NCBI GenBank assembly: GCA_019694335.1
Contig: JAIBCD010000021.1
Coordinates: 1-49,754, forward strand
DNA from: Rhodospirillaceae bacterium
GTDB lineage: Bacteria > Pseudomonadota > Alphaproteobacteria > Rhodospirillales > Rhodospirillaceae
DNA: 49,754 nt
Direction: 5' to 3'
Of the stretch, positions 36,014 to 49,754 are shown piece after piece. The notes beneath the pieces were generated by a model. The model was not told the origin of the DNA and ran no database searches. It was given only the letters and a program-made list of their open reading frames with translations. A program made the translations under genes and the position numbers. Position 1 is the first letter of the stretch, and the number at the start of each line of letters is the position of its first letter.

Positions 36014-37099
36014 ATGCTGAACAAAGACAAAGAAGATATCGGTCAGGACCGTATCTCGATCATGGTGGTCGAGGACAACGAGTACATGCTCGACATCCTG
36101 GTCAACAGCCTCAAGCGGCTGGGTTTCACCCGTGTCCAGAAGGCCAAGAACGGCAAGGAAGCGGTCGAGTACCTGAAACTCACCTCCAAGGGTTTCTCCG
36201 CGGCGGTCGAGCCCATCGACATCGTCATCTCGGACTTCATCATGTCGCCGGTGAGCGGCGTGCACCTGTTGCAGTGGCTGCGGGACGACAAGCAGTCGCC
36301 GTCCCGTTTCATGCCGTTCATCATGCTGTCCGGCGCCGCCGACCGTGTGAACGTGGAGGCCTCGCGCGACCATGGTGTCAACGACTTCATGGCCAAACCG
36401 TTCTCGGTCGAGAATATCTATAAGGTGCTGCAGCGGATCATCGACGCGCCGCGCCAGTTCGTGACCACCCAGACCTACTTCGGGCCGGATCGCCGCCGCT
36501 CCAAGGCCGGACCGCCCAAGGGGCAGGAGCGGCGCAAGGAAGGCGAAGCCCACGCCACCATCGTCTATGCCAAGGACAAGGTGGAAAAGCCGGCGTCGCC
36601 CTCGGACGTGTGGCTGTTCAAGCTGCCCAACTACCTCAAACAAAAGATGGGCTCGAACGCCCAGCGCCAGCCGTTCATGCTGCCCGACGCCATGCTGGCC
36701 TCGGCCGAACAGCAATTGAAGCGCGAGGCCGACGGCTTCCTGGACTGGGCCAAGGGATACCTGGAACGCCTCTCGCGCCAGGTGGCGGAGGCCAAGCAGA
36801 TCAGCGGCGAGCGCACCGCCAATTTCGAGGAAATCAACCTGATCGCCCACGAACTGCGCGGTCAGGGCGGCACCTTCGGCTATCCGCTGATCACGGTGTT
36901 CGGCAAGTCGCTGTACGAAGTGACCAAGCCGCCGTGCCGCCAGGACGACTCCAACCTGGAGATCGTCAAGGCGCATATCGACACCATGCGCGCGGTGTCG
37001 CGCGACGAGATCGAGGGCGACGGCGGCGATGTCGGCCAGATGCTGTTCAAGGCCCTCAAGATGGCGATCGCGAAATACGCGCCGCCGGCGGCCGAATAG
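36014..37099 (+). CDS. Two-component protein with receiver (REC) and C-terminal HPt-like domain
   Basis: Residues about 16-140 are a receiver: MVVEDNEYML acidic pair, phospho-acceptor Asp in DIVISDFIMSPVSG near 75, Ser in IMLSGAADR and Lys in DFMAKPFS. A basic linker (TYFGPDRRRSKAGPPKGQER) follows. Residues about 225-345 are helical and contain NLIAHELRGQGGTFGYPLI, a good match to the HPt phospho-histidine motif (H-x-L-(K/R)-G-x3-x2-FG). A protein that can both accept phosphate on Asp and hold it on His is unusual. The kinase at 37111 follows after 11 bases, so the pair probably forms one phosphorelay. The output is not evident: there is no DNA-binding domain. Confidence 0.85.
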   Translation: MLNKDKEDIGQDRISIMVVEDNEYMLDILVNSLKRLGFTRVQKAKNGKEAVEYLKLTSKGFSAAVEPIDIVISDFIMSPVSGVHLLQWLRDDKQSPSRFMPFIMLSGAADRVNVEASRDHGVNDFMAKPFSVENIYKVLQRIIDAPRQFVTTQTYFGPDRRRSKAGPPKGQERRKEGEAHATIVYAKDKVEKPASPSDVWLFKLPNYLKQKMGSNAQRQPFMLPDAMLASAEQQLKREADGFLDWAKGYLERLSRQVAEAKQISGERTANFEEINLIAHELRGQGGTFGYPLITVFGKSLYEVTKPPCRQDDSNLEIVKAHIDTMRAVSRDEIEGDGGDVGQMLFKALKMAIAKYAPPAAE

Positions 37100-37110
37100 C
37101 CGGCGCCGCT

Positions 37111-38916
37111 TTGGCTCGGGCGCCCAACCAGTCCTCAAAAAACGGCGCCTCGTCGCTGCGCCGGCTCCGTGCGGCGACCCTGCTTCTGTTCACCAGTTTC
37201 GTGCTTCTGGTGATCAGCGCGGGCGCCTACTACCTCGAACAGCAACGCCAGGCGGCGATCGATACCGCGCGGCGCACCGCACGCGCCGCGCTCGACACCG
37301 TGCAATATCAAGCCGCGCAGACCTTCGGCGACACCTTGCGCATGTCTGAGGGCGTGGCCGACGTCTACCGCGAGCAACTCGCCCACAATCAGGTCAACGA
37401 AGCCACGCTGCACCAGCTGATGAGCGCCAAGCTGCCGCGCATGCAGGGCCTGGTCACCTTCACGCTGTTCGATACCGAGCACCACGGCATCGCCGGTTCG
37501 CGCTCCTATCCGGTCGATGTGTCCATGATCATCACCAGCGGGATGTCCTTCGAAACCTTCGCGGACATCGGCGACGACATGTTCTTCGGCCAGCTCTACA
37601 GGAACATCCGCCCCGGCCTCCTCGTCGACCAATGGTTCCTGCCGTTTGGCAAGATCGTCCGCGACGCCGGGGGCATCGTGCGCGGCTATGTGGTGGCCTT
37701 GTTCAACGCCAATTTCTTCGCCCAATACTACGCCACCCTGGACCCCGGCGCGCACGGCCAGATTTCGATCTGGTCGGCGGATGGCCTCATGCTCGCCGCC
37801 AGCCGCAACGAAAGCCGCGGCGCGGCCAATGCCGCCATGGCGGAAGAAATGCGTAAATTGCGCGACGCGTCCGACGGCCGGACCCTCACCTATGTCCAGG
37901 GACGCGGGGACAACGAAAGCAAAGTCACCGCCCTCGGGCTGGTCGGCGCGCTGCCGGTGTTCGTGGCGGTCGAGATGGACGGCCGCGATTTCATGGCGCC
38001 CTGGCGCGCGACGCGCAACCAGATCTTCCTGGCGATGGCGGTCGTGATTCTGGGCGCCGCGGCATTCGCCGTGATCATCCTGCGCCAGATTCATCATACC
38101 GAGCAGAACGAACTGGCCTTGCGCCACGCAAAAGCCTTGGCGGAGGACGCCAGCGACGCCAAGAGCCGCTTCCTCGCCCATATGAGCCACGAGTTCCGCA
38201 CGCCCCTCAACGCCATCATGGGGTTCTCCGAGATCATCAAGAACCAAGTGCTGGGCGGGACCGTTTCGCCGGACTATGTCGGCTACGCCGCCCACATCCA
38301 CCGCTCGGGCGAGCATCTCCTGCATATCGTCAACGAGATCCTGGATACCGCCAAGATCGAGCTGGGGGGCGAACCCTTGCAGCAAAAACCCACCGACATC
38401 CGCACCCTCGTCCTGGGCGCGATCGGCTTCGTCGAGGGACTCGCCGCCGGGAAAAACCTCAAGCTGAGCGTCGCCCTGCCGAACGAACTGCCGATGATCG
38501 CGAGCGACGAACGCTTCGTGCGCCAGGTTCTGATCAACCTCATGTCCAACGCGATCAAGTTCTCGCCATCGGGCGCCGAGATCGTGATCGGCGCGTGCAA
38601 TCATCCCGAATCCGGCGTCACCATATCGGTCTCGGATCATGGACCCGGCATCGAACCCAGCCTGCTCAAGCGGCTGGGCGAACCCTTCCTGCAGGGTAAC
38701 CCGGCCCTCTCGCACTCCGGCCAGGGCACCGGGCTCGGGCTGTCCATCTGCAAACGCTACATGGACCTCCTGGACGGCGAACTGAAGGTGGAAAGCACCC
38801 TCGGCAGCGGCACGACCGCCACCATCCGTTTCCCGCGCCATCTGATCGCGGCGGCGGCGGAAGTCCTGAAAAGCCCGTTGCCGCAACCCGTGACGCAAGC
38901 ATCGGCAGCGGTTTGA
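37111..38916 (+). CDS. Membrane sensor histidine kinase
   Basis: About 601 residues from the TTG at 37111 (the only usable start before the first helix). TM1 is near 20-41. A periplasmic sensor domain of about 260 residues follows (DTARRTARAALDTVQYQAAQ, then YRNIRPGLLVDQWF; dCache-like), then TM2 near 304-326. HisKA has FLAHMSHEFRTPLNAIMGF with the phospho-His near 359. HATPase_c has LMSNAIKFSPSG, DHGPGIEPSLL and GTGLGLSICKRYMDLLDGEL. There is no attached receiver or DNA-binding domain. Its partner is the REC-HPt protein just upstream. The frame stays open upstream over the partner gene, but that part is out of phase with it and not coding. Confidence 0.9.
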   Translation: MARAPNQSSKNGASSLRRLRAATLLLFTSFVLLVISAGAYYLEQQRQAAIDTARRTARAALDTVQYQAAQTFGDTLRMSEGVADVYREQLAHNQVNEATLHQLMSAKLPRMQGLVTFTLFDTEHHGIAGSRSYPVDVSMIITSGMSFETFADIGDDMFFGQLYRNIRPGLLVDQWFLPFGKIVRDAGGIVRGYVVALFNANFFAQYYATLDPGAHGQISIWSADGLMLAASRNESRGAANAAMAEEMRKLRDASDGRTLTYVQGRGDNESKVTALGLVGALPVFVAVEMDGRDFMAPWRATRNQIFLAMAVVILGAAAFAVIILRQIHHTEQNELALRHAKALAEDASDAKSRFLAHMSHEFRTPLNAIMGFSEIIKNQVLGGTVSPDYVGYAAHIHRSGEHLLHIVNEILDTAKIELGGEPLQQKPTDIRTLVLGAIGFVEGLAAGKNLKLSVALPNELPMIASDERFVRQVLINLMSNAIKFSPSGAEIVIGACNHPESGVTISVSDHGPGIEPSLLKRLGEPFLQGNPALSHSGQGTGLGLSICKRYMDLLDGELKVESTLGSGTTATIRFPRHLIAAAAEVLKSPLPQPVTQASAAV

Positions 38917-39033: not shown

Positions 39034-39165
39034 GATGACGCGCGTTGACCGTGCGCCCGGATCCCTGAAGATGACGCGCGTTGACCGCGCGCCCGGATCC
39101 CTGAAGATGACGCGCGTTGACCGCGCCCGGATTCTTGAAGATGACGCGCGTTGACCGCGCGTCAA
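39034..39165. repeat. 36-bp tandem repeat array, about 3.6 copies
   Basis: Units start at 39034, 39070, 39106 and 39140 (spacing 36, 36, 34). Each begins GATGACGCGCGTTGACCG and ends GGATCCCTGAA or a variant. The third unit lacks two bases and the last is cut by the downstream stop codon. A poor upstream copy lies near 39001-39033. Each unit contains a GC-rich imperfect inverted repeat. The array sits between two convergent genes. The 250-base gap from 38917 otherwise contains only a run of nine T near 38928 and GC-rich filler. Confidence 0.88.
39143..39163 (-). terminator. GC-rich hairpin overlapping the methyltransferase stop
   Basis: GACGCGCG-TTGAC-CGCGCGTC is an 8-bp perfect stem in the last unit of the tandem array, overlapping the stop codon of the minus-strand gene. 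There is no T-run, so it may stop transcription weakly from both sides, or act as an mRNA 3' barrier, rather than be a canonical terminator. Confidence 0.4.
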
Positions 39166-39884
39166 GGCTTAGTGAAAAACATCAGGTGCTGCCAGGGCAG
39201 GCTGTCGTCCGTGCGCAGCCAGGTCAGACCCACCGCCGCCATTTCCTTCTTGGCCTGCGCCTGGGTCATGCGGTGGGTGTCGCGGATCGGCACCTTGGGA
39301 TCTTCGCCGCGATATTCGACCAATGCGATGCGCCCGCCCGGTTTCAGTGCGCGCGCCATGGCCAGGCCCATCTCGCGCGGGTAGGAAAATTCGTGATAGG
39401 CGTCGACCAGCAGGATCAGGTCGATGGTGTTCGGCTTCAGGCGTGGATCGGCGACGCCCCCCAGCACGGTCACGATATTGGCGCCCTCTGCCTTGCCCTG
39501 AGCGGTCCTGGCTTGGCGCTCCTTGATCATGTCCAGCATCTCTTTCTGGATATCCACGGCGTAGACGTACCCCTGGGGCACCGCCGCCGCGAGCCGGAAA
39601 CTGAAATAGCCTGAACCCGCGCCGATGTCGGCGACCGCGTCGTTGGGTTTCAGGCCAAGCAGCGACACCAGGCGCTCGGAGCCCTCCTCTTTGTTGCGCT
39701 CGGGCCGGTCCAGCCACTGGGCGGCTTCATGACCCATCACATAGGCGATCTCGCGCCCCATGTAGGATTTGCCGATGCCGTCGAGGGTCGGCCCGATATT
39801 GGTGTAGCCGTCCTTGTCGGGCGCCGCGGCAAAGGCCGGCGCTGCCAGGATTAGGGCCGCTGCGAGAGTCCAACGCAAGATCAT
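39162..39884 (-). CDS. Class I SAM-dependent methyltransferase with export signal
   Basis: The 240-residue protein begins with a clear signal peptide (MILRWTLAAALILAAPAFAA), followed by DKDGYTNIGPTLDGIGKSYM, EIAYVMGHEAAQWLDRPERN, the SAM-binding motif AVADIGAGSGYFSFRLA near 83-99, VYAVDIQKEML, LILLVDAYHEF and a motif III-like LKPGGRIALVEYRG. Homologous exported 'MGREIA.VMGH..A.WL.R' methyltransferases are widespread in Proteobacteria but have no agreed substrate, and SAM is not known to be available in the periplasm. Its ATG overlaps the small membrane gene (ATGA), placing it last in the lptF-lptG-hydroxylase-GNAT run and suggesting a lipid or envelope substrate. Confidence 0.85.
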   Translation of the reverse strand: MILRWTLAAALILAAPAFAAAPDKDGYTNIGPTLDGIGKSYMGREIAYVMGHEAAQWLDRPERNKEEGSERLVSLLGLKPNDAVADIGAGSGYFSFRLAAAVPQGYVYAVDIQKEMLDMIKERQARTAQGKAEGANIVTVLGGVADPRLKPNTIDLILLVDAYHEFSYPREMGLAMARALKPGGRIALVEYRGEDPKVPIRDTHRMTQAQAKKEMAAVGLTWLRTDDSLPWQHLMFFTKP

Positions 39885-40156
39885 CGCCTGTCCCCATCGT
39901 CATTTCTGAGCGGCAGATCGTTCGGGTCGTGATCGATCACCGGCGGCGTGTGCCGCTGATCGCCGGGAGATTCGCCAGGCCTGATCGGCGCGCCGCCGAC
40001 CACCCAGACATTCCCATATTTCTTGCCGAACAGAAAGAACAGCAGCGCCAGAACCGGCACCACGATCAACGCCGCCAGAAAGGCGTAGGCGAACAGCACC
40101 AGCACCACCGCGGCGATTGCCAGCGCAAAGGCCACGCGGAGGATGCGCGCGATCAT
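39881..40156 (-). CDS. Small membrane protein in the ceramide-related operon
   Basis: Started at the ATG at 40156 (ATGA overlap with the GNAT gene stop), the 91-residue protein has one long or hairpin membrane region (ILRVAFALAIAAVVLVLFAY followed by AFLAALIVVPVLALLFFLFG) and a polar C-terminal tail with GNVWVVGGAPIRPGE and a Pro/Asp-rich end. No family is recognised. The stop overlaps the exported methyltransferase start, so it is cotranslated between a putative ceramide synthase and an exported enzyme. Longer upstream reading is antisense-like and rejected. Confidence 0.7.
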   Translation of the reverse strand: MIARILRVAFALAIAAVVLVLFAYAFLAALIVVPVLALLFFLFGKKYGNVWVVGGAPIRPGESPGDQRHTPPVIDHDPNDLPLRNDDGDRR

Positions 40157-41352
40157 GTCGCGTTTTCCGCGCGCGGGGAAGCGCGCCCATCCAGCGGGCG
40201 CTCGAACATGCGGTAGGTTTTGTAGACCCGGCCGCCGATATCCTCGATGGAGTGGCAGGTCTGGGTGTTGGTCTCCAGCACCCAGCTCATCTCGCACACC
40301 GGCATCCGCAGTTTCAGCGAAGCCTCGCGCACGGCGCCGACGGTGAGCAGCGCCAGCTGCGACCCCATCGGCTTGTTCTTGAACTCGGGCAAGACTCCCA
40401 TGAGGATCACGCGCGTGCCCGAGATGTAGGACTTCAGGGTCAACAGGCGCCACAGCAGCTTGAGGGCGTTGACCAGGGACAGCTTGCCCTTAAGGTCGTG
40501 GATCATCTCGTTGCGGTCCGGCAACGCCAGGCACATCGCCACGGGCCGGTCGTCGATGGTCGCGATCGAGACCAGCTCCGGCACCAGGATGAGCTTCACC
40601 TCCTCGGCCAGGTGTTTGGCCTCGGCGTCGGTCATGGGGATCGAACCCCAGTTCTCGGTCCAGCCGGCGCGGAAGATATCGATGATCGCGGCGAAATCCT
40701 CGTCGTAGCGCTTCGGGTCGAGGGCGCGCACCTTCAGCTTCGGATTGCGCTGGAGACTGCGTTTCAACCACTTGAGCTGCTTGTAGGGCAGCGCCGTGTC
40801 CATGGGCGTGAGATAGGCGCGCATATCGACGGCTTTGGCAAATCCGGCCGTCTCGACCAGCTTTTGATAATAGGGCTGCGCGTGGCCCATGGCGAGGCGC
40901 GGCGGGCAGTTGAACCCGTCGATGAGAAGGCCGGACTCGTCGTTGATGTTGAAGCTGAACGGCCCGACACAGCGCCGCATGCCTTTTTCGCGCAACCAGA
41001 CGAATGCCGCGTCGAACAGCGCATCCGCGACGCCTTGGTCGTCGATGCATTCGAAGAAGCCGAAAAAGCCGGTGGCGTCGTTATAGAGCTTGAGATGGTT
41101 GTGATCGATCTGGGCGGAGATGCGGCCCGCGAGCTTGCCGTCCCGCTCCGCCACCCACAGGACCGCCTCGCCGTGCTGGAACCAGGGATTCCGCTTCGGA
41201 TTGAGGCGAGGCGCCTCGCCGTCGGCCAGCGGCCCGCATTCAAATGAAAGGGATGCGACCCAGTAGGGATCGTGCCCCTGGGTGATATGCGGCACGCGCA
41301 GAAAGTCCGCGACCTTCGCGCTCTCGCCGACACGCTTGATCGTGATGGCCAA
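40153..41352 (-). CDS. GNAT-fold acyltransferase, candidate bacterial ceramide synthase (bCerS)
   Basis: The 399-residue protein starts ITIKRVGESAKVADFLRVPH and has the YghO-like blocks LNPKRNPWFQHGEAVLWVA, AQIDHNHLKLYND, GFFGFFECIDD and RRCVGPFSFNINDESGLLID. The second GNAT half contains PVAMCLALPDRNEM and a C-terminal CEMSWVLETNTQ, the last strand where acyl-CoA GNATs bind substrate. In Caulobacter the ceramide synthase encoded near spt is a GNAT-fold protein of this size (Stankeviciute et al.). Here it is 11 bases downstream of a lipid hydroxylase gene and about 6 kb from spt, so N-acylation of the sphingoid base is the best inference. Soluble, cytoplasmic, no signal peptide. Confidence 0.75.
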   Translation of the reverse strand: MAITIKRVGESAKVADFLRVPHITQGHDPYWVASLSFECGPLADGEAPRLNPKRNPWFQHGEAVLWVAERDGKLAGRISAQIDHNHLKLYNDATGFFGFFECIDDQGVADALFDAAFVWLREKGMRRCVGPFSFNINDESGLLIDGFNCPPRLAMGHAQPYYQKLVETAGFAKAVDMRAYLTPMDTALPYKQLKWLKRSLQRNPKLKVRALDPKRYDEDFAAIIDIFRAGWTENWGSIPMTDAEAKHLAEEVKLILVPELVSIATIDDRPVAMCLALPDRNEMIHDLKGKLSLVNALKLLWRLLTLKSYISGTRVILMGVLPEFKNKPMGSQLALLTVGAVREASLKLRMPVCEMSWVLETNTQTCHSIEDIGGRVYKTYRMFERPLDGRASPRAENAT

Positions 41353-41363
41353 GGGCTGGTCTC

Positions 41364-42152
41364 TCAGGTGGCGGCTTCGCGTTTGCGCTGCGCCGGATTG
41401 GTGTTGTAGGGCCAGGTCGGCGTCAGGCGCGCGACGTAAGGGTAGCGCTTGGCCACTTCCTCGTCATAGCCGAGGTTGAACACGGTGGCGGACCGCGGGC
41501 GATCCTTCGGGCCCTGATAGAACGTGCCCAGCACCTTGTCCCACCACAGATTGGTGATGCCGTAGTTGCCGTTCTCGTTGTGGAAGTGGTGCGCCATGTG
41601 GAATTTCTTGATCTCGCGCACCCAGCCCCATTTCGGCACGTAGCCGAGGTGCTGGATACAGTGGAAGTATTCATAGACGCAGGTCTGGATCACGCCGGTG
41701 GCGAGCGCCGCCAGCGCGCCGGTCCAGCCCGCCAGCGCGTAGCCGACCGGCATGGTCGCCAAGGCCACGGTCGGCAGCGTGGTGTAGAGCGCGCCGAACA
41801 GCACCTTGAGATTGTTGGGGTCGCTATGATGGTCGTAATGGATGCGCTTCCATGTGCCGGCGGTGAGCGGCGATTTCCACATCCAGCGGCTGTGCAGGAT
41901 GAACCGGTGCAGCAGGTACCACGCCACCGGATAGAGGAAGAACGCAGCCGCGACGGCGGCGAACACCGGCAGGACGTCCGCGCGGCCCGCCAGCAGGCCT
42001 TGCACGGCAAAGGCGCCCGCGACCAGCGCGACCGCGATATAAGCCGCGATGGCGTAGTACTGGAAATAGGCCTGGGTCAGCTCCCGCAGGTTCATGCGGT
42101 CGAGGTGATAGGCCCGGTCGGACCAGAATCCGAACTTGAAAGACTGCGCCAA
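41364..42152 (-). CDS. Sterol desaturase / fatty acid hydroxylase superfamily protein
   Basis: A 262-residue membrane protein with helices near 28-50, 60-82 and 125-160. The eight-histidine di-iron motifs are complete: HRFILH (82-87), HYDHH (105-109), HCIQH (164-168) and HMAHHFH (185-191), followed by NENGNYGITNLWWDKVLGTF. Enzymes of this superfamily hydroxylate or desaturate lipid chains, including sphingoid bases and ceramides in eukaryotes (Sur2/Scs7). Between lptG and the GNAT gene it is most likely a ceramide or sphingoid hydroxylase. Starts at the ATG at 42152, 47 bases after lptG. Confidence 0.88.
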   Translation of the reverse strand: MAQSFKFGFWSDRAYHLDRMNLRELTQAYFQYYAIAAYIAVALVAGAFAVQGLLAGRADVLPVFAAVAAAFFLYPVAWYLLHRFILHSRWMWKSPLTAGTWKRIHYDHHSDPNNLKVLFGALYTTLPTVALATMPVGYALAGWTGALAALATGVIQTCVYEYFHCIQHLGYVPKWGWVREIKKFHMAHHFHNENGNYGITNLWWDKVLGTFYQGPKDRPRSATVFNLGYDEEVAKRYPYVARLTPTWPYNTNPAQRKREAAT

Positions 42153-42199
42153 GATGGCCCTGCGAAACCGCCGAATACGTGGCGTTTATATAAACCCGC

Positions 42200-43264
42200 T
42201 CAGGTGCGGGCGCCAGTGTGCTCGAGGTTGAACACCAGCCAGACGCCGCCGGTGGCGAATATCGCCAATGGCAGCCAGGCCGCGAAGGACGGCGGCAAGG
42301 ATCCGAACTGGCCCATGGCCAAGAGGATGTTGTCGATGACAATGAACCCAAAGCCGAAAGTGATGCCCCAGACAAGGGTTAGCGCCGGCGACCCCTGGCG
42401 GTGGTGGCTGAAGGCCGCGATCGCGGCGAGCAGCGGCATCAGGGCGAGCACGATCGGGCCCGCTATCTTCTGCTGTAACCATGTTTCATAAAAATACGTC
42501 GGCCGTGAGCCCATGGTGACCTTGCCGACATATTCCTGCAGGGCGTTCAGCGATAGCTGGTTGGGGTGCGCCTGCTCGTGGATGAAATGTTCGGGCTTGA
42601 GATGGGTCTCCCAGGTGGGCGGATCGGCACCGGTGCCGCCGACGCGCTCCACGTCGAACATGGTCCAGTGGTCGTCTTCCCACACGGCCAGGCGCACCGT
42701 CAGGATTTCGGTGATGTCGGCGTGAGTGCCCTGGCGGAACAGGTGGATGTCGTTGAGCACCTGGCCTTCGCGCGCCACATGACCGACGCGGATGATGGTG
42801 TTGCCTTCGATCAGCCAGTTGTTGTCGCCGGTGTCGACCTGGCCATCGGCCTTGAAACCGGCGTTGCGCCATTCCTGCAAGCTGGCGCTGGCGGGCACGA
42901 CGACGAATTCGCCGAACAGGAACAGCATCGCCGACAGGCCGATGCCGATCGCCACCAGGCCGCCGATCAGGCTGAATACCGAGCGGCCGGCCGCGCGCAT
43001 GGCGATGATCTCGCTGTTGCGCGCCATGCCGAGCAGCGCCATCAGCGCGCCGAGCAGCCCCGCGAGCGGCGCCAAGGTCTCGATCAGCGACGGCGCGCGC
43101 AGGGAGACATAGCGCAGGAGCGATGCGATCGGCGGTCCGCCGCCATTGAGAATCTCGTTCGCGGTGGCCAGCAGATCGAGGGTCTGGAGGAACAACACCA
43201 GGCCCGCGAGCAAGGCCACGAAATGCCCCACGAAGGAGCGCATCAGGTAACGCGACATGATCAT
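42200..43264 (-). CDS. lptG: LptG-like permease subunit (YjgP/YjgQ family)
   Basis: The 354-residue protein has three N-terminal helices, starting RYLMRSFVGHFVALLAGLVL and going on to LIETLAPLAGLLGALMALLG. A periplasmic beta-jellyroll of about 170 residues (FGEFVVVPASASLQEWRN near the start) and three C-terminal helices (IAGPIVLALMPLLAAIAAF) follow. This is the complete LptF/LptG fold that, with the LptB ATPase, extracts lipid from the inner membrane. It follows lptF by 10 bases. In most alphaproteobacteria lptD and surA come next; here a lipid hydroxylase and the ceramide-synthase-like gene follow instead. Confidence 0.9.
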   Translation of the reverse strand: MIMSRYLMRSFVGHFVALLAGLVLFLQTLDLLATANEILNGGGPPIASLLRYVSLRAPSLIETLAPLAGLLGALMALLGMARNSEIIAMRAAGRSVFSLIGGLVAIGIGLSAMLFLFGEFVVVPASASLQEWRNAGFKADGQVDTGDNNWLIEGNTIIRVGHVAREGQVLNDIHLFRQGTHADITEILTVRLAVWEDDHWTMFDVERVGGTGADPPTWETHLKPEHFIHEQAHPNQLSLNALQEYVGKVTMGSRPTYFYETWLQQKIAGPIVLALMPLLAAIAAFSHHRQGSPALTLVWGITFGFGFIVIDNILLAMGQFGSLPPSFAAWLPLAIFATGGVWLVFNLEHTGART

Positions 43265-43274
43265 GTGCGGGCCG

Positions 43275-44525
43275 TCATGCGCTCACGGGCGGCTTGCGGC
43301 GGAACACCGAAGCGACGCGGCCCTGGAACGACAACCAGGCGGCCTCGAGCTGCTGCACCGGCGGCGTGCCCGCCTTGAGGTCGGTACGGAAGAACAGATA
43401 GGTGCTGCCGGTGGCGTAGAGCGCGAACAGCGTCCACAGAATCAAGCCGGCGGGGGCGCCGGTGGCGCTGGCGTAGGCGGCGGTGAAATCCAGGCACTTG
43501 TGGTAACTGACGATGATCGAGAGGCCCAGCACCAGGCCAAAGGACCGCGACGAACGGCGCGTCATGATGCCCATGGGCGCCGCCAGCAGCGGCAGGAACA
43601 GCATCGAAATGCCGAACACCAGACGATTGTGGAACGCCGCCGCCACCGCCGACGGCGCCACGATCTGCTCGGGCGGTTCTTCCGGTTCGGGATTCGCATC
43701 CGCCTGGGAGCCGAAGCGGCCAGCAAGAAGATTGTAGCGGTAGCCGCGCAAGAGTTCGGCGATGGTCAGCTCGCGCTCGTCGCCGCCACGTCCGCGAAAG
43801 CGCATCAGCTCGGCGAGATTGAGCGGCCAGTCCATGGCGTCGAACTGCAGGGTCGAGTTGGCGTGGGTCTTGGGATCCCATTCCGAACGGTTGCCGTTGT
43901 AGAGGCGCAAGGAGACGTTGCCGTCGAGCCCGCCCGCGATCACTTCGCCCTGTTTGGCGGTGAGCGTGGTGATGGTGCCGTCCGGCTCCTGCTTATGGGC
44001 GAACACGCCGTAAAGCTCGCGCCCGCCGGAGCGCGATTGATCGACGCGCAGGGTGTAGCCGTTGGGCAGGCTCATGAAGATGCCTTCGCCAATTCCCTGC
44101 TCGATCACGCCGGAGGTCACCTTGAACAGGATCAGGCGGTAGGCGTAGTAGGCATAAGGCTGCACGTAGCCCGAAAGGACGAAGTTGAACGCCATCATGA
44201 TGAAGGCCAGCCCGACCGCCGGACGGATGAAGCGCACGATGCCGACGCCGCTGGACTGGATGGCGTCCAGTTCCGCCTGCGCGGAAAGCTTTCGGAAAGC
44301 GAGCAGCACGCCCAGGAACAGTCCAACCGGCAGGGCCAGCGCGATATAGCCCGGCACCAGATTGAACAGCATCTGGAACACCACCAAGGTCGAGACCCCG
44401 TTGCCGACCGCGAGATCGAGCAGGCGCATCAACCGGTCCATGCTGAGGATCAGCGCCGCGACCAGCAGCGTGATCAGCAGGGTCGGTATGATCTGGCGCA
44501 AGAGGTACCAGTCGATGGCCTTCAT
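43275..44525 (-). CDS. lptF: LptF-like permease subunit (YjgP/YjgQ family)
   Basis: From the ATG at 44525 (MKAIDWYLLRQIIPTLLITL) the protein has about 416 residues. It has an N-terminal helix set with DRLMRLLDLAVGNGVSTLVV and YIALALPVGLFLGVLLAFRK, a coupling-helix ELDAIQSSGVG, a periplasmic jellyroll (residues about 130-290) and C-terminal helices with LVFGISMLFLPLLAAPMGIM. LptF and LptG form the transmembrane dimer of the lipopolysaccharide exporter. It is the first gene of a minus-strand run of six genes ending at 39162 and is divergent from the lipid kinase at 44681. A GTG at 44552 in frame is less likely. Confidence 0.9.
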   Translation of the reverse strand: MKAIDWYLLRQIIPTLLITLLVAALILSMDRLMRLLDLAVGNGVSTLVVFQMLFNLVPGYIALALPVGLFLGVLLAFRKLSAQAELDAIQSSGVGIVRFIRPAVGLAFIMMAFNFVLSGYVQPYAYYAYRLILFKVTSGVIEQGIGEGIFMSLPNGYTLRVDQSRSGGRELYGVFAHKQEPDGTITTLTAKQGEVIAGGLDGNVSLRLYNGNRSEWDPKTHANSTLQFDAMDWPLNLAELMRFRGRGGDERELTIAELLRGYRYNLLAGRFGSQADANPEPEEPPEQIVAPSAVAAAFHNRLVFGISMLFLPLLAAPMGIMTRRSSRSFGLVLGLSIIVSYHKCLDFTAAYASATGAPAGLILWTLFALYATGSTYLFFRTDLKAGTPPVQQLEAAWLSFQGRVASVFRRKPPVSA

Positions 44526-44680
44526 CGTCTCAGCCCTGCCGTGAACGCGCACGGTCGCGATTTTTTATTGTTACAGAACGCAGGAAATCGTTCCGCTGCC
44601 GCCGCGCGCTTATGTCACACTTTGGATGCAACCTGAAGATTTTAGGGGCCCGGCAGGCTTGAGGCTAGGCCACCTTTTTT

Positions 44681-45697
44681 ATGGCCGGGCCGCATGCCCT
44701 TCCGTTCGCCCACGTCCAGAGGATGCTGATTCGCTTCGACTCCATGGTTAAGGCCGTGCCAGAACCCCTCGCCGTCATCACCAACCGCCGCGCGGCGCGG
44801 AACCGCGGCAACGACAACTGGGTCGACCCGCTCATGGCGCACGAGGCCAGGGTCGCCCACTTCCAGTTCGATCGCGCACAAGACGCCGCGGCATGTGTCG
44901 GGCGCTGCGCCGCCCTGGGTGCGCGCACGATCGTGGTGAACGGCGGCGACGGCACCGCTGGCCTGGTGTTCCAGGCCCTGCTCAATGACAACGGCTACGG
45001 CGAACGGCCGTCCATCGCGCTGCTGCCCGGCGGCAAGACCAACATGACCGCCGCCGGCTGGAGCCGGGGCGGCAATGCCCCCGCGTCACTCAGATCCATT
45101 CTCGAACTTCGGCGCGAGCGCGGCTTCGCGCGGCACCTGGTCGAACGGCCGATCCTGCGCCTGTCGCGCCCCAAGGAGCCCACGCTGTACGGCGCGTTCT
45201 TCGGCGCGGCCGAAGTGGCGGACGGCATCAAGCTGTGCCGCAAGCGCCTCTACCCCCTCAATCTGCCCGACACGTTCAGCCATGCGGTGGCAGCGACGCT
45301 TACGTTTGTGCGCAGCGTGGTCAAGCGCGGCAAGCAAGTGAGTGTCGCCGACGAACGCGGCGGCCTGGAGGACGGGCGCTTCTTCCTGATCGGGATCACG
45401 GTGCTGGACGAGTTGCTGTTCGGCCTCAAGCCCGCCACCGCGGCGCGCGAGGATGCACCGGGACTCCGTTATCTTTCCGTCCGCAACGGCGTCAAGCCGA
45501 TGCTCGATGCCGTGCCGGACCTGCTGCACGGCCGGATCGCGCCCGGCCCGGGACGTACCGTGCGGCGCGCCGGTAGCCTCACCTTGCGCTTCGATGGCGC
45601 ATATACCCTGGACGGCGAGCTGTACGAGGCCCACGCCGACCGGCCGGTGACCGTGGACAGCCAGCCGCGCCTGCGTTTCCTGCAAGTGCCGTCATGA
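44681..45697 (+). CDS. Diacylglycerol-kinase-family lipid kinase, candidate ceramide kinase
   Basis: The DAGK catalytic domain is present: PLAVITNRRAARNRG (start near residue 29), the nucleotide loop TIVVNGGDGTAGLVFQAL with GGDGT at 88-92, and the second motif ALLPGGKTNMTAAGW in place of the usual 'PlGTgNd'. A C-terminal beta-sandwich ends YTLDGELYEAHADRPVTVDS. It phosphorylates a lipid hydroxyl using ATP. Next to spt and a Tam41-like gene it resembles the Caulobacter locus whose lipid kinase phosphorylates ceramide (CpgB, by my recollection). Several starts are possible (44681, 44723, 44744), none with a strong ribosome site; the conserved part needs only the last. Confidence 0.82.
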   Translation: MAGPHALPFAHVQRMLIRFDSMVKAVPEPLAVITNRRAARNRGNDNWVDPLMAHEARVAHFQFDRAQDAAACVGRCAALGARTIVVNGGDGTAGLVFQALLNDNGYGERPSIALLPGGKTNMTAAGWSRGGNAPASLRSILELRRERGFARHLVERPILRLSRPKEPTLYGAFFGAAEVADGIKLCRKRLYPLNLPDTFSHAVAATLTFVRSVVKRGKQVSVADERGGLEDGRFFLIGITVLDELLFGLKPATAAREDAPGLRYLSVRNGVKPMLDAVPDLLHGRIAPGPGRTVRRAGSLTLRFDGAYTLDGELYEAHADRPVTVDSQPRLRFLQVPS

Positions 45698-46536
45698 ATC
45701 CTTGGGAATTGTGCGCGGAAGACCTGCGCCGGCATTACCGCGCCGCCGCGGTCATCTTCTATGGCTCGTGCTTGCGCGACCGCACGGCCGACGGCCTGCT
45801 CGATTTCTATGTGCTGGTGGACCGGTATAGCGACGCGATGGGAAACGCCGCGGCGCTGGGCGCGTGGCTGTTGCCGCCCAATGTCTACTCTCATGTGCTG
45901 GGAACCGCGCGCGCCAAGGTCGCGGTCATGCGCGTGGATGAGTTTCTGTCCGACCTCGGCGCGAACCGGTTCACAACCACCCTGTCGGCGCGATTCGCGC
46001 AGCCGTGCGCCATCGTTCATGCCCGCGACAACGCCTTGCGGGCGCGGCTGGAGGCGGGTTTCGTCACCGCCGCGAACACCTGCATCCAGCGGACCCTGCC
46101 GTTGATGCCGCCGCAATTCACCGCCCTGGACCTGTGGCGGCGCGTGTTGAGCGAAAGCTTTGCCGCCGAGCTGCGCCCGGAGCGGCCGGAGCGCATCCGG
46201 TCGCTGGTGGATGGCACTGCCGCGTTTTACGCCGCCGCGACCGAGCGCGTCCTGGGCGCCCCCAGCGACGGCGTATACCGCATCGTCCCGCGGCGCGGCG
46301 CGCGGGCAGGCGCCACGCTGGCCTGGTGCCTGCGGCGCATCCTGGGCAAGACCCTCAATGCCCTGCGCTTGATAAAGGCCGCGTTCACGTTTCAGGGCGG
46401 CATCGACTACGCGGCCTGGAAGATCGGGCGGCATACGGGGATCATGCTTCCCGTCACCGACGATGACCGCAAAAAGCCACTGCGCGCGGGCCTCAGGCTG
46501 TTCGCCCGAAGCCTGCGCCTAAACGCGATACGTTAA
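45694..46536 (+). CDS. Tam41-like nucleotidyltransferase (candidate lipid cytidylyltransferase)
   Basis: A 280-residue protein with AAAVIFYGSCLRDRTADGLL (Tyr23-Gly-Ser) followed by LLDFYVLVDRYSDAMGN and PPNVYSHVLG, then AKVAVMRVDEFLSDLGA and ARFAQPCAIVHARDN. The order GS, hydrophobic-D-hydrophobic strand, 'N.YS', 'K..v....fl.Dl' and 'gR...P..i' parallels the mitochondrial CDP-diacylglycerol synthase Tam41, a pol-beta-type nucleotidyltransferase. The ATG overlaps the lipid kinase stop (ATGA). Together they suggest phosphorylation of a lipid, then CMP activation of it, a step needed for phosphoglycerate-type ceramide headgroups. It ends five bases before the convergent spt stop. Family link by motif only. 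Confidence 0.6.
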   Translation: MNPWELCAEDLRRHYRAAAVIFYGSCLRDRTADGLLDFYVLVDRYSDAMGNAAALGAWLLPPNVYSHVLGTARAKVAVMRVDEFLSDLGANRFTTTLSARFAQPCAIVHARDNALRARLEAGFVTAANTCIQRTLPLMPPQFTALDLWRRVLSESFAAELRPERPERIRSLVDGTAAFYAAATERVLGAPSDGVYRIVPRRGARAGATLAWCLRRILGKTLNALRLIKAAFTFQGGIDYAAWKIGRHTGIMLPVTDDDRKKPLRAGLRLFARSLRLNAIR

Positions 46537-46541
46537 GGGAA

Positions 46542-47774
46542 TCAGCCGGCGGCGATGCGCCGGGAAGCGGGGCGCTCGATCATGCCCAGGCGCAACGCGA
46601 CATCGGCGAAGATGTCGATGATCTGGTCGATCTGCGCTTCGGTATGCGCGGCGCACAGGCTGGCCCGCAGCAGCGAGTAGCCGAACGGCGTCGCCGGCGG
46701 CAGGGCCAGGTTCACATAGACGCCCGCCTCGATCAGGCCGCGCCAAAAGGCGATCGCAGTCTGCGGATCCGGCGCCACCACGGCGATCACCGAACTCACG
46801 TCGCTGCCCAGCTTGAGGCCGAGGCCGGAAAGGCCCTGGTGCAGCTGTTCGGCGTTGCGCATCAGGCGGGCGCGCAAGGCGCCGCCCTGCTTGATGAGCT
46901 TGAGGTTGGCCGTGGCCGACACCACCACCGACGGCGGCAGCGAGGCCGTGAACACATAAGCGCGGCACACCAGGCGCAGCACGTCGAATTGCGGATGATT
47001 GGAGACGCAGAAACCGCCGACCGTGCCAACCGATTTGGAGAAGGTGCCAACAATGAAATCCACATCGTCTTCCACACCGGCCTCTTCCGGCAGGCCGCGG
47101 CCATACCGGCCGAGCACGCCGAGCGAGTGCGCTTCGTCGGAGAGCAGGTAGACGTTGGAGAACTTCTTTTTGACCGCAACGATCTCGGCGATCGGCGCCT
47201 TGTCGCCCAGCATCGAGTAGATGCCCTCGATCACGATCAGCTTGTTGCCGGGCTTGCCTTCGAGGCGCGCCAGGCGCTTCTCGAGGTCGGCCGCGTCGTT
47301 GTGGCGGAAACGGATGATCTGCGCCGCGCTGCCGCGCACGCCGTCGTAGATCGACGCGTGGCAGTCGGCGTCCATGAGGATGTAATCCTCGGGGCCCATC
47401 AGCGTGGAGAGAATGCCGAGATTGGCGAGGAACCCGGTGGAGAACACCATCGCGTGGTCCTTGCCGAAGAACTCGGCCAGGGCGTTTTCCAGATCCTTGT
47501 GGCTGCCGTAGGTGCCGTTGGCGACGCGGCTGCCGGTGGTGCCGGTGCCACAGGCCTCGAGCGCATCATGCGCGGCCTTCAGGGCTTCCGGCGAGAAGGT
47601 CAGGCCGAGGTAGTTATTGGTACCGGCGAGGATGGTGCGGCGGCCTTCGATCATCGCCTCGGTCGGCGAGAGCAGTTCGTCCATCTTCACTTGGAAAGGA
47701 TTGATGCCGCCGTCGCCCAGGAGGGCGTCACGTTGCGCCATCAGGGGCGCGAAGCGGTCGAATAGGTCAGCCAT
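46542..47774 (-). CDS. spt: Serine palmitoyltransferase (alpha-oxoamine synthase family)
   Basis: The 410-residue PLP enzyme has NNYLGLTFSPEALKAAHDAL, GTGTTGSRVANGTYGSHKDL, His139 in MDADCHASIYDG stacking on PLP, DEAHSLGVLGRYGRG with Asp213 and His216, and the Schiff-base Lys247 in VGTFSKSVGTVGGF. It condenses L-serine with an acyl thioester to 3-oxosphinganine, the first step of sphingolipid synthesis. AOS relatives KBL, BioF and ALAS are excluded mainly by context: the dedicated acyl carrier protein gene lies 39 bases upstream in the same direction, with a ceramide-reductase-like epimerase and an acyl-ligase before it, as in Caulobacter. Confidence 0.9.
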   Translation of the reverse strand: MADLFDRFAPLMAQRDALLGDGGINPFQVKMDELLSPTEAMIEGRRTILAGTNNYLGLTFSPEALKAAHDALEACGTGTTGSRVANGTYGSHKDLENALAEFFGKDHAMVFSTGFLANLGILSTLMGPEDYILMDADCHASIYDGVRGSAAQIIRFRHNDAADLEKRLARLEGKPGNKLIVIEGIYSMLGDKAPIAEIVAVKKKFSNVYLLSDEAHSLGVLGRYGRGLPEEAGVEDDVDFIVGTFSKSVGTVGGFCVSNHPQFDVLRLVCRAYVFTASLPPSVVVSATANLKLIKQGGALRARLMRNAEQLHQGLSGLGLKLGSDVSSVIAVVAPDPQTAIAFWRGLIEAGVYVNLALPPATPFGYSLLRASLCAAHTEAQIDQIIDIFADVALRLGMIERPASRRIAAG

Positions 47775-47813
47775 GGGTAGTCTCCGCAGAACAAAATGCA
47801 GACGGGACGCGAC

Positions 47814-48068
47814 TCAAGACTTTCCCTCACCCAAAATCTTGTCGATCGCGCTCGCCAGCTCTCCCACGGTCGCCACATCCGGCAGGATGTTGAGCGGCAC
47901 CGAGATGTCGAACGCGTCTTCAACCGCGGCAACGAACTCCATGACGATCAGCGAGTCGAAATTGAGATCCTCGGTGAATCGCGTCGCCGCGGAAAGCGGG
48001 GCATTGGTTTTGTTGAACGGCCCCAGGATCGGGATCAGCCGTGCGACAATCTCGGCCGGGGCGCTCAT
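47814..48068 (-). CDS. Acyl carrier protein dedicated to sphingolipid synthesis
   Basis: From the ATG at 48068 (MSAPAEIVARLIPILGPFNK) the protein has 84 residues with the phosphopantetheine site Ser39 in DLNFDSLIVMEFVAAVEDAF and a fourth helix VGELASAIDKILGEG. It is a discrete carrier protein, not the housekeeping AcpP (which has DSLDTVE). Placement directly before spt suggests that acyl-ACP, not acyl-CoA, is the substrate of Spt. An upstream in-frame reading to 48128 lacks ACP character and a ribosome site. Confidence 0.9.
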   Translation of the reverse strand: MSAPAEIVARLIPILGPFNKTNAPLSAATRFTEDLNFDSLIVMEFVAAVEDAFDISVPLNILPDVATVGELASAIDKILGEGKS

Positions 48069-48119
48069 AGCGAAAACCAGTCCACACTTTTCACTCCTCG
48101 CGCGGCAAAAAGTGGGTAA

Positions 48120-48150
48120 CCCGCGCAAGTCATTGGAAAACTTGTGCGGG
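48120..48150 (-). terminator. Stem-loop between epimerase and ACP genes
   Basis: CCCGCGCAAGT and ACTTGTGCGGG form an 11-bp arm with one mismatch around a 9-base loop. Read on the minus strand it is followed after about 12 bases by TTTTT. It could be a terminator or attenuator separating the AMP-ligase/epimerase genes from acp-spt, or an intercistronic processing structure. Confidence 0.4.
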
Positions 48151-48175
48151 ATGCGCCCGTTAAGGACAAATCAAC

Positions 48176-49132
48176 TTAGGGGTTACTCTTTAACAGGCCT
48201 CGTGAGCGGTACCAGGCGACCGCATCCGCAAAGCCTTTTTCTATATCCCACAGTGGCTTAAAGCCTTGGGGCGGCGCGCCGGCCGCGACCCAGTCGGGAT
48301 GCGTAAATTCGCGCATTTTCTCGAACCCCAGCACGCTTGGGCGGCCGGTGAGCCGGCTGAACAGGCTGCCGGCGGCGCCGGCCATATAGAGTACCGGCGC
48401 CGGAATCCTGGCGATCTTGGGGATTTTCCCGAGGGCGCGGCCGGCCGCGGCGGCGATTTCGTCCCAGGCATACCCCCCCGCCTTGCCATCGTCGAACTCC
48501 ACCGGCTGCGTGGGCATCGGTTGCTCCGCCAGAGCGCCGGCCAGAACCCGGCCGACGTCGTCGGCATGCACCAGGGAGATTTTCCCCGCCCCGGACGGCG
48601 CGACCAGCCAGCCCCGTTCCGCCATCTGGAAAATCCGTAAAGTCTCCATGTCGCCGGCGCCGTAGACCGCGGGCGGGCGCAGAATGAGCGTCGGCAGGCG
48701 CGGGCTGAACGCCCGGAGCACCTGCTCGGCGGCCCGCTTGCTGGCCGCGTAGGAAGACAGGTGCGGTTCGCGCGCCGCGAGCGACGAGACCAATATGAAA
48801 CGCGGCCGCTTGGCCTGCGCGGCCGCGATCCCGGCGAGGCGGCGCGTGCCGCCGGCGTTGATGTCGAAGAATTCGTCCCGCGACCGCGCCTTGATGGCGC
48901 CGGCGCAGTGGATCACCGCATCCGCGCCTTCGAGCAGCGCGCCAAGCGCGGCTTCGTCCTCAAGCGCGCCCTGAATCCAGGTGACGTTGTCTTGAGCGCC
49001 TTGCGGCTTGCGCGCCAGCGCGCGCACCTGGAATCCGGCGGCGCTCAAATTGCGCAGCATGTAGCCGCCGACAAAGCCGGTGGCGCCCGTGACCGCGACG
49101 ATTTGTGGAAAGTCGGGTCGGGGCGCATTCAT
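48176..49132 (-). CDS. NAD(P)-dependent epimerase/dehydratase family, candidate ceramide reductase (CerR)
   Basis: Started at the ATG at 49132, the 318-residue protein has the extended-SDR Rossmann motif VTGATGFVGGYML (residues 14-26), HCAGAIKARSRDEFFDIN, SSLAAREPHLSSYAASKRAA with catalytic Tyr128 and Lys132, and LRPPAVYGAGD. It lies five bases after the AMP-ligase stop and in the same direction as acp-spt. In Caulobacter the homologous gene encodes the enzyme that reduces the 3-oxo group of the ceramide precursor. No signal peptide is evident. The fold is sure; the reaction is inferred from the conserved gene cluster. Confidence 0.85.
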   Translation of the reverse strand: MNAPRPDFPQIVAVTGATGFVGGYMLRNLSAAGFQVRALARKPQGAQDNVTWIQGALEDEAALGALLEGADAVIHCAGAIKARSRDEFFDINAGGTRRLAGIAAAQAKRPRFILVSSLAAREPHLSSYAASKRAAEQVLRAFSPRLPTLILRPPAVYGAGDMETLRIFQMAERGWLVAPSGAGKISLVHADDVGRVLAGALAEQPMPTQPVEFDDGKAGGYAWDEIAAAAGRALGKIPKIARIPAPVLYMAGAAGSLFSRLTGRPSVLGFEKMREFTHPDWVAAGAPPQGFKPLWDIEKGFADAVAWYRSRGLLKSNP

Positions 49133-49137
49133 GGCGA

Positions 49138-49754
49138 TTAGCCTTCGTCGGCGACGGCTGGGCCGTCGCTGTCCTGCGGCAGGGCGGCAATCTCGCCGCG
49201 CTCGTACATCGCCTTGGCGCGCGCGCGGGCGAGTTTGCCGGAACTGGTCTTCGGCAGGCTGCGGGGCGCGACCAGGATCACGTCGCAAACGACGCCCGCC
49301 GCTTCCTGCACCCGCGCCTTGACCTCGGCGGCCAGGCGCTGGCGGTCGGCCGCCTTGGCGGCGCGGCATTGCACCAGCACGGCGGGCTGTTCGTTTTCGC
49401 CCGACCCCAGCAACACGGCGGCGCTGTCGCCGGACCGCAGGCCCTCGACGTGTTCGACCGCCCATTCGATGTCCTGCGGCCAGACATTGCGGCCGTTGAT
49501 GATCATCATGTCCTTGGCGCGGCCGACGATCACCAGCTCGTCGTTCAGCCAATAGCCGAGGTCGCCGGTGTTCAACCAACCGTCCTGCAATGCGTCGGCG
49601 GTGGCTTCGTCGTCGTTGAGATAGCCGAGCATGACGCTCGGCCCCTTGAAGAAGATGCGCCCCACCGTGCGTTCGCCGACCACGGCGCCGTCGTCGGCGC
49701 GCACTTCGACCTTGTGGTCCGGCAACACCTTGCCGCAGGCGACGAAAGTGCGCA
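49138..49754 (-). CDS. AMP-dependent acyl-ligase (fatty acyl-AMP/ACP ligase), C-terminal part, runs off right edge
   Basis: The frame is open to the window end and gives about 205 residues of an ANL-superfamily enzyme: TFVACGKVLPDHKVEV at the edge, then FKGPSVMLGYLNDDEAT, WLNTGDLGYWLNDELVIVGR, MMIINGRNVWPQDIEWAVEH and the catalytic Lys in LPKTSSGKLARARAKAM. The string 'IINGRNVWPQDIE' is typical of fatty acyl-AMP ligases (FadD32-like). It would adenylate a fatty acid and load it on the nearby acyl carrier protein for serine palmitoyltransferase. It is the most upstream gene of this operon visible in the window. Confidence 0.88.
   Translation of the reverse strand, partial: RTFVACGKVLPDHKVEVRADDGAVVGERTVGRIFFKGPSVMLGYLNDDEATADALQDGWLNTGDLGYWLNDELVIVGRAKDMMIINGRNVWPQDIEWAVEHVEGLRSGDSAAVLLGSGENEQPAVLVQCRAAKAADRQRLAAEVKARVQEAAGVVCDVILVAPRSLPKTSSGKLARARAKAMYERGEIAALPQDSDGPAVADEG

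What the first reader, a model, noticed from the sequence alone, without database searches (positions are those of the whole stretch)
39162..49754. Compact ceramide-lipid locus that also carries LptFG, a hydroxylase, a lipid kinase, a Tam41-like enzyme and an exported methyltransferase
Seen: twelve adjacent genes. Spt, a dedicated ACP, a CerR-like epimerase and an acyl-AMP ligase form one operon. A ceramide-synthase-like GNAT, a di-iron lipid hydroxylase and LptF/LptG form another. A lipid kinase with a Tam41-like nucleotidyltransferase lies between them. Known: spt, ACP, CerR, the ligase and a GNAT-type ceramide synthase make ceramides in Caulobacter, where anionic ceramide lipids can stand in for lipid A. 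Inference: this is a near-complete module from acyl loading to headgroup activation and export, making a hydroxylated, phosphate-containing ceramide. The order with LptFG and the methyltransferase may be undescribed.
Basis: partly seen in the sequence, partly recalled or inferred. Interest (0 to 1): 0.78.

Follow-up and report, generated by a model that had tools for sequence, protein, structure and literature searches.

The report
Bacterial ceramide locus with built-in hydroxylase
This stretch carries a known kind of bacterial ceramide-making and ceramide-exporting gene cluster that also contains a relative of the enzyme eukaryotes use to hydroxylate ceramides, and that hydroxylase gene sits beside the ceramide synthase gene in many other alphaproteobacteria.

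Summary
The twelve genes are real, though the ligase is cut by the contig end. Most of the locus matches the published Caulobacter phosphosphingolipid region: aasR-cerR-acpR-spt, CpgB kinase, CpgC, second-copy LptF2/LptG2, CerS. The claim that the LptFG arrangement may be undescribed therefore fails: a tree puts the window's LptF and LptG with ceramide-locus LptF2/LptG2, apart from the genome's other LptF and LptG. CPG2 genes are not in the locus; CpgA has no match in the genome. The methyltransferase was found beside the locus only in this genus; 4 of 21 hydroxylase-bearing kin lack a Tam41-like match. What the Caulobacter locus does not have is the hydroxylase. Its only solved relative is yeast Scs7, the ceramide fatty-acid 2-hydroxylase; ten histidines are invariant in 36 of 36 rows. 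In 385 alphaproteobacterial genomes a relative occurs in 37 (own included); all 37 also hold the ceramide synthase, and in 33 it lies directly 5' of it, same strand. Most likely it 2-hydroxylates the ceramide N-acyl chain before headgroup addition and LptF2G2 export. Hydroxylation site and headgroup are untested. In the held papers only a one-sentence annotation (Rhodothalassium) was found. New variant of a known kind.

The parts
39162..39884 (-). methyltransferase with signal-like N-terminus; probably a neighbour, not part of the module
   Evidence: Methyltransf_11/25; in 8 of 23 Spt>=70% loci with 9.5 kb downstream; an opposite-strand ORF separates it from the small protein in 6 kin loci
39881..40156 (-). 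91-aa membrane-like protein, no family
   Evidence: no Pfam hit; in 10 of 23 close loci; overlaps the ceramide synthase stop by ATGA
40153..41352 (-). ceramide synthase-like GNAT (CerS/bCerS, CC_1154 type)
   Evidence: 38% identity to the gene at the CC_1154 place in Caulobacter vibrioides L097; the only match in this genome at E<=1e-25
41364..42152 (-). di-metal hydroxylase of the FA2H/Scs7 type (PF04116)
   Evidence: Scs7 4zr1/4zr0 the only PDB hits at E<=10, best 1.3e-11, profile 2.5e-15; ten invariant His in 36 of 36 rows
42200..43264 (-). LptG2
   Evidence: LptG TIGR04408 262 bits; groups with ceramide-locus LptG2, support 90/95, below the tree's star threshold
43275..44552 (-). LptF2 (start codon uncertain)
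   Evidence: LptF_LptG 227 bits; groups with ceramide-locus LptF2, 99/98
44681..45697 (+). CpgB-like ceramide kinase
   Evidence: DAGK_cat; 28-30% to Caulobacter kinases at the CpgB place; GGDG present, CxxxCxxC absent as published for CpgB
45694..46536 (+). CpgC-like, Tam41-like nucleotidyltransferase
   Evidence: 38% to Caulobacter L097 at the CpgC place; Tam41_Mmp37 its only Pfam hit at E<=5, 0.0055, below cut-off
46542..47774 (-). serine palmitoyltransferase Spt
   Evidence: NF047599 617 bits, cut-off 500
47814..48128 (-). AcpR-type acyl carrier protein (true start probably near 48068, by eye)
   Evidence: PP-binding 2e-8; DSL motif
48176..49132 (-). CerR-like reductase
   Evidence: Epimerase 2e-24; 39% to Caulobacter L097
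49138..49752 (-). AasR-like fatty acyl-AMP ligase, C-terminal part only
   Evidence: NF006624 259 bits over residues 1-189 (below its full-length cut-off of 600, as expected of a part); contig ends at 49754

Best explanation
A chromosomal ceramide synthesis and export locus of the Caulobacter kind, with a ceramide hydroxylase added. AasR loads a fatty acid on AcpR, Spt condenses it with serine, the GNAT-type CerS N-acylates and CerR reduces (known steps; homology only here). The FA2H/Scs7-type protein, encoded between LptG2 and CerS, most likely adds a 2-hydroxyl to the N-acyl chain of the new ceramide in the inner membrane, with an electron donor encoded elsewhere since it has no cytochrome b5 domain (inferred). 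The CpgB-like kinase makes ceramide-1-phosphate and the CpgC/Tam41-like enzyme probably activates it with CTP (inferred). LptF2/LptG2, second copies distinct from the genome's other LptF/LptG, probably carry the finished lipid toward the outer membrane with shared Lpt parts (inferred, as proposed for Caulobacter). The methyltransferase is probably a neighbour.
For: Gene identities. Gene order shared with Caulobacter and other named genomes and with the published locus (PMC11324152). LptF2/G2 tree, with a separate LptF and LptG elsewhere in the genome and LpxC present. Hydroxylase: Scs7 the only PDB hit; ten invariant His; 59.8 bits for Scs7 against 18-29 bits for nine PF04116-like proteins of related genomes. 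A relative in 37 of 385 alphaproteobacterial genomes, own included, with CerS in 37 of 37 and directly 5' of it in 33 of 37, median gap 75.5 bp between matched ends. Adjacent too in 6 of 6 strong hits among 19 searched genomes of fetched loci, one of them Rhodothalassium salexigens, reported to make dihydroceramides (PMC11762602).
Against: No lipid data exist here for this genome. The Rhodothalassium passage describes dihydroceramides without naming a hydroxyl on the acyl chain. 13 of 50 CerS-bearing genomes have no such hydroxylase at the cut-off used. A Methylococcaceae genome outside the pairing (L114/G437) holds a PF04116-like protein at 52.8 bits with the same alignment, near Scs7's 59.8, so closeness to Scs7 is not unique. 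The cloned Sphingomonas 2-hydroxylase is a P450, not this family (PMC10002949). Scs7 being the only solved relative does not exclude Sur2-like (base C4) activity. In four genomes, all of one family, the two genes are not adjacent. The counts come from related genomes; the hypergeometric value ignores this.
Confidence: 0.66

Rival explanations
1. The hydroxylase acts on the sphingoid base (Sur2-like C4 hydroxylation, giving phytoceramide), not on the N-acyl chain.
For: Recalled: yeast Sur2 is of the same broad superfamily. Only Scs7 shows among solved structures, so this comparison cannot separate the two. Other bacterial PF04116-like proteins can score near Scs7 (52.8 bits in G437). In two class loci the gene sits directly between spt and CerS (L194, L209).
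Against: The profile scores Scs7 at 59.8 bits, above nine PF04116-like proteins of related genomes at 18-29, and the His motifs align with Scs7. The usual neighbour is CerS, the N-acylating enzyme (33 of 37).
Confidence: 0.22
2. The hydroxylase works on another membrane lipid or on free fatty acid and is only housed with the ceramide genes.
For: [quoted passage not shown] PF04116 is a functionally broad family (recalled).
Against: 0 of 385 genomes hold the relative without CerS at E<=1e-25 (37 of 37 with it).
Confidence: 0.12
3. LptF/LptG here serve LPS or another lipid and their place in the locus is incidental.
For: The LptG scores above the LPS-export model cut-off; LpxC is present. Pairs in the same clades also lie beside a glycosyltransferase, not Spt, in kin, so the clades are not exclusive to ceramide loci. 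LptG support is 90/95, under the star threshold, and two LptG-like neighbours of beta/gamma Spt loci fall outside the clade.
Against: A separate LptF and LptG exist in the genome. The locus copies group with ceramide-locus copies from Caulobacter, Niveispirillum, SYSU D60014 and a Sphingomonadales genome.
Confidence: 0.12
4. The final lipid carries no phosphoglycerate: with CpgA missing, the headgroup is something else, for example inositol phosphate made by a separate locus.
For: CpgA (assigned by place in L077): no match in this genome. Four of 21 hydroxylase-bearing kin (G003, G004, G013, G018) have no Tam41-like match; three of these four, plus G000 and G015, carry a cassette of inositol-1-phosphate synthase fused to a nucleotidyltransferase, a CDP-alcohol phosphotransferase and a flippase-like protein.
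Against: Five related genomes only; G004 is 79% and G018 89% complete; such cassettes may make soluble di-inositol phosphates (recalled). In Caulobacter CpgB and CpgC, both with counterparts here, are needed for CPG, CpgA for CPG2 (PMC11324152).
Confidence: 0.25

Closest known systems
Caulobacter crescentus CC_1168-CC_1152 ceramide/phosphosphingolipid locus (PMC11324152)
   Same: aasR-cerR-acpR-spt order, CpgC and CpgB counterparts convergent with spt, LptF2-LptG2 followed by CerS
   Different: PF04116 hydroxylase between LptG2 and CerS; no CpgA, CC_1153 or CpgD in the locus or in 23 close loci; in Caulobacter hydroxylation is assigned to CC_0202, a DesA-type enzyme elsewhere
Niveispirillum lacus and SYSU D60014 loci (L092, L071)
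   Same: Caulobacter-type locus plus the same hydroxylase next to CerS (55% and 48% identity)
   Different: also carry a CDP-alcohol phosphotransferase and a metallophosphatase, with a HIT protein in L092; L071 has a second CDP-alcohol phosphotransferase
Yeast Scs7 / animal FA2H ceramide fatty acid 2-hydroxylase
   Same: PF04116 domain and the His-motif pattern
   Different: no fused cytochrome b5 domain; activity unknown; bacterial locus with CerS
Rhodothalassium salexigens (PMC11762602)
   Same: dihydroceramides reported, spt and an annotated 'sphingolipid/fatty acid hydroxylase' noted; here found adjacent to CerS
   Different: the passage does not mention a CerS pairing, and says the lipid is neither glycosylated nor phosphorylated
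Myxobacterial FA2H-like 2-hydroxylases (Ring et al. 2009, known only as cited in PMC10002949)
   Same: FA2H-like bacterial 2-hydroxylases tied to sphingolipid formation
   Different: myxobacteria, not alphaproteobacteria; sequence not compared here

Membership tests
[quoted passage not shown]
   ligase partial
Caulobacter-type ceramide locus | second-copy LptF2/LptG2 | tested here: met
   tree (LptF 99/98, LptG 90/95); other copies in the genome
Caulobacter-type ceramide locus | ceramide kinase CpgB: GGDG, no CxxxCxxC | tested here: met
   with criteria from PMC10331486 (passages); activity not tested
Caulobacter-type ceramide locus | CPG2 genes CpgA, CpgD, CC_1153 in the locus | tested here: not met
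   0 of 23 close loci show any of the three within the stretch held; CpgA 0 matches in G000; CC_1153 homologue elsewhere at C53, 37%; CpgD only as superfamily hits. Queries were assigned by place in Caulobacter sp. RHG1
FA2H/Scs7 fatty acid 2-hydroxylases | PF04116 domain and the histidine motifs | tested here: met
   ten His invariant in 36 of 36 rows; their role as Scs7 metal ligands is recalled
FA2H/Scs7 fatty acid 2-hydroxylases | fused cytochrome b5 domain | tested here: not met
   262 aa, only FA_hydroxylase found; plant enzymes also lack it (PMC10002949), so not defining of the whole family
FA2H/Scs7 fatty acid 2-hydroxylases | 2-hydroxylation of the ceramide acyl chain | not testable with these tools
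   needs lipidomics
FA2H/Scs7 fatty acid 2-hydroxylases | groups with Scs7/FA2H rather than Sur2 in a tree | not tested
   no Sur2 or FA2H sequences were fetched
Tam41 CDP-DAG synthases | match to PF09139 above its cut-off | tested here: not met
   16.5 bits, cut-off 24, yet the window protein's only hit at E<=5; 2 of 38 family members match it at E<=5, best 1.2e-4, and two unrelated families also match 2 members; structure prediction unavailable
bacterial ceramide synthase bCerS | homology and place of CC_1154 | tested here: met
   38% identity, 246 bits, after LptG2 in L097
bacterial ceramide synthase bCerS | N-acylation of the sphingoid base | not testable with these tools
   needs an enzyme assay

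The most novel reading that the evidence does not exclude
Across much of the Alphaproteobacteria an FA2H/Scs7-type ceramide 2-hydroxylase is a fixed partner of the GNAT-type ceramide synthase, so that these bacteria and eukaryotes make 2-hydroxyceramides with homologous hydroxylases but non-homologous ceramide synthases; in the window's family the hydroxylase, the synthase and a dedicated LptF2G2 form one core unit while the headgroup genes come and go.
Probability: 0.58. Interest if true: 0.6.

Novelty: new variant of a known kind. Interest (0 to 1): 0.47.

Why it matters
It names a candidate enzyme for 2-hydroxylated ceramides in many alphaproteobacteria, where the hydroxylases met in the papers seen are a DesA-type enzyme (Caulobacter) and a P450 (Sphingomonas). 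In Caulobacter loss of the ceramide hydroxyl is reported to change the response to colistin (PMC11324152), so ceramide hydroxylation bears on outer-membrane behaviour. The association with CerS and LptF2G2 also gives a compact target for testing how bacterial ceramide lipids reach the outer membrane, which two of the papers seen call unknown.

Tried and rejected
Ceramide replacing LPS in this genome: not supported, LpxC is present and a separate LptF and LptG exist. Phosphonate headgroup: considered from the 611-aa nucleotidyltransferase frame, dropped when Pfam showed an inositol-1-phosphate synthase fusion. LptC2/flippase upstream of the ligase: in the one kin locus annotated (L040) the four upstream frames tried are DUF2063, MbnB-type, DUF2282 and one without a family. 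2-hydroxy fatty acids as chemotaxonomic support: searches listed papers but I found no data for the hydroxylase-bearing genera; Iodidimonas has C18:1 2-OH and C14:0 2-OH (PMC10556733) but its genome was not tested, so this is not used. Promoter/terminator scan: near shuffle level. The hypergeometric value ignores relatedness and is not used as a probability. Prior art on the locus or hydroxylase was sought in searches only.
Full report
What is there. The twelve frames of 39162-49754 are open and carry the expected families, with the Tam41-like call weak. The window is contig C17 of a 4.02-Mb, 228-contig genome assembly, 97% complete; the acyl-AMP ligase is cut by the contig end. The nearest named relatives by Spt are metagenome assemblies titled Rhodospirillaceae, Alphaproteobacteria or, it seems wrongly, Candidatus Marinimicrobia.

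It is a Caulobacter-type ceramide locus. A scan with the window's Spt returned 80 loci, the best of 298. Mapped with window proteins, Caulobacter vibrioides L097 shows ligase, reductase, ACP, Spt, then Tam41-like and kinase on the other strand, then LptF, LptG and GNAT, the order published for CC_1165-CC_1154 with further genes between (PMC11324152; abstract, passages and section 9 seen). That paper already names second versions of LptC, LptF and LptG in the locus and says they probably take part in sphingolipid transport. In a 47-row tree the window's LptF lies in a 17-row clade (99/98) and its LptG in a 13-row clade (90/95, below the tree's star threshold) with ceramide-locus copies of Caulobacter, Niveispirillum, SYSU D60014 and a Sphingomonadales genome, apart from the other LptF and LptG of the same genome. 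The clades also hold LptFG-like pairs of three kin (L159-L161) that lie beside a gene called GT4 glycosyltransferase in the one tested, L160, and two LptG-like neighbours of beta/gamma Spt loci fall outside. LpxC is present in G000 and in 39 of 41 genomes searched.

How the group's locus is built. Among 32 loci with Spt at least 70% identical, 23 hold at least 9.5 kb downstream: LptG, hydroxylase and GNAT in 20 of 23, LptF in 17, Tam41-like and kinase in 18, the small membrane protein in 10, the methyltransferase in 8, and CpgA, CC_1153 or CpgD in 0 (similar loci not merged, L065 and L087 are of one assembly). The three without LptG, hydroxylase and GNAT in reach are L052, L053 and L056. Among 48 loci with Spt at 50-70%, 35 hold 9.5 kb downstream: hydroxylase 5, GNAT 23, LptG 21, CpgA 20 (in some of these GNAT lies at or beyond the end of the stretch held). 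In six close kin (L040, L042, L044, L045, L049, L050) an opposite-strand frame separates the small protein from the methyltransferase (in L040 a cation efflux protein), and four 19.9-kb stretches from other genera of the family show no methyltransferase match (L165-L168).

The headgroup. CpgA, CC_1153 and CpgD queries were taken by place from Caulobacter sp. RHG1. CpgA has no match in G000; 15 of 41 genomes have some match, 12 of them order-level ones, and only G003 exceeds 35 bits. A CC_1153 homologue is at G000 C53 (37% identity; 20 of 41 genomes), after a cytidylyltransferase-RraA fusion and before a gene that in a kin copy is a sub-threshold match to CDP-glycerol glycerophosphotransferase and in G000 has no family. 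CpgD gives superfamily hits in 41 of 41, best 34% in G000. In Caulobacter CpgB and CpgC are the genes for the first phosphoglycerate (PMC11324152 passages, PMC12275187 abstract and opening). So a ceramide phosphate derivative is likely, CPG2 by the Caulobacter route is not, and the headgroup is open.

The hydroxylase. Its only hits among solved structures, at E up to 10, are two yeast Scs7 chains, named ceramide very long chain fatty acid hydroxylase; the family profile gives 2.5e-15, 59.8 bits. Nine PF04116-like proteins of related genomes, those fetched, score 18-29 bits with the same alignment; but one protein of a Methylococcaceae genome reaches 52.8 bits, so nearness to Scs7 is not unique. 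Ten histidines (82, 87, 105, 108, 109, 164, 168, 185, 188, 189) are invariant in 36 of 36 rows and align with Scs7 histidines; that these are the Scs7 metal ligands is recalled. No cytochrome b5 domain is found.

Its tie to ceramide synthase. In 385 alphaproteobacterial genomes drawn evenly from a larger group, own genome included, the hydroxylase has a match at E<=1e-25 in 37 and the GNAT in 50; all 37 hydroxylase genomes are among the 50. In 33 of 37 genomes, in 21 of 22 families, it lies directly 5' of the GNAT on the same strand, gap between matched ends median 75.5 bp and at most 284 bp. The four exceptions are of one family, f45. One genome has two such pairs. Thirteen GNAT genomes lack it. 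Of the 29 hydroxylase loci L189-L217, read with at most 1.5-kb flanks, 21 show a further ceramide-locus gene besides GNAT. Among 19 genomes of fetched loci searched, six have a strong hit, all six adjacent to GNAT, one a weaker one (G437) and twelve none, Caulobacter (2) and Salinicola (2) among them. One of the six, Rhodothalassium salexigens, is reported to make dihydroceramides and to carry an annotated sphingolipid/fatty acid hydroxylase (PMC11762602, passages); the passage names no hydroxyl on the acyl chain, which is neutral or against.

Known background. FA2H-like 2-hydroxylases are known in myxobacteria and a P450 in Sphingomonas (PMC10002949, passages); Caulobacter hydroxylation is assigned to CC_0202. 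Word searches of PMC11087976, PMC9386255 and PMC11334938 find no 'hydroxylase' in the text. Eight library searches listed no paper on the hydroxylase-CerS pairing that I recognised; most subscription papers are not held, among them the 2022 Caulobacter ceramide synthase paper (recalled), of which I saw nothing.

Verdict. The cluster is a known kind; the hydroxylase-CerS pairing is the new element. Shown: identities, grouping of LptF2/LptG2, adjacency, conservation. Inferred: the hydroxylation site, order of steps, CTP activation, transport role, headgroup.

Noticed in passing
39034-39161: 36-bp tandem repeat, 3.6 copies, 92% matches, immediately after the methyltransferase stop.
   Followed up: no
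L159 (G024), L160 (G015), L161 (G008): A further LptF/LptG pair, in the LptF2/LptG2 clades, beside a 404-429-aa gene (GT4 glycosyltransferase in L160) and a ~310-aa gene without a family in L160; possibly export of a different lipid.
   Followed up: partly
L274 (G000 C94), L273, L275, L276, L277: Conserved three-gene cassette: inositol-1-phosphate synthase fused to a nucleotidyltransferase, a CDP-alcohol phosphotransferase and a flippase-like protein (families tested in L273, the fusion also in L274); three of its five carriers lack a Tam41-like match.
   Followed up: partly
L180 (G000 C53:3756-4505): CC_1153 homologue after a cytidylyltransferase-RraA fusion and before a gene that is a sub-threshold CDP-glycerol-phosphotransferase match in L181.
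   Followed up: partly
   Followed up: partly
   Followed up: no
G387 C25 and C7: One genome with two hydroxylase-GNAT pairs.
   Followed up: no
36014-38916: Response-regulator-like and histidine-kinase-like frames next to the locus on the other strand (frames, reading by eye).
   Followed up: no
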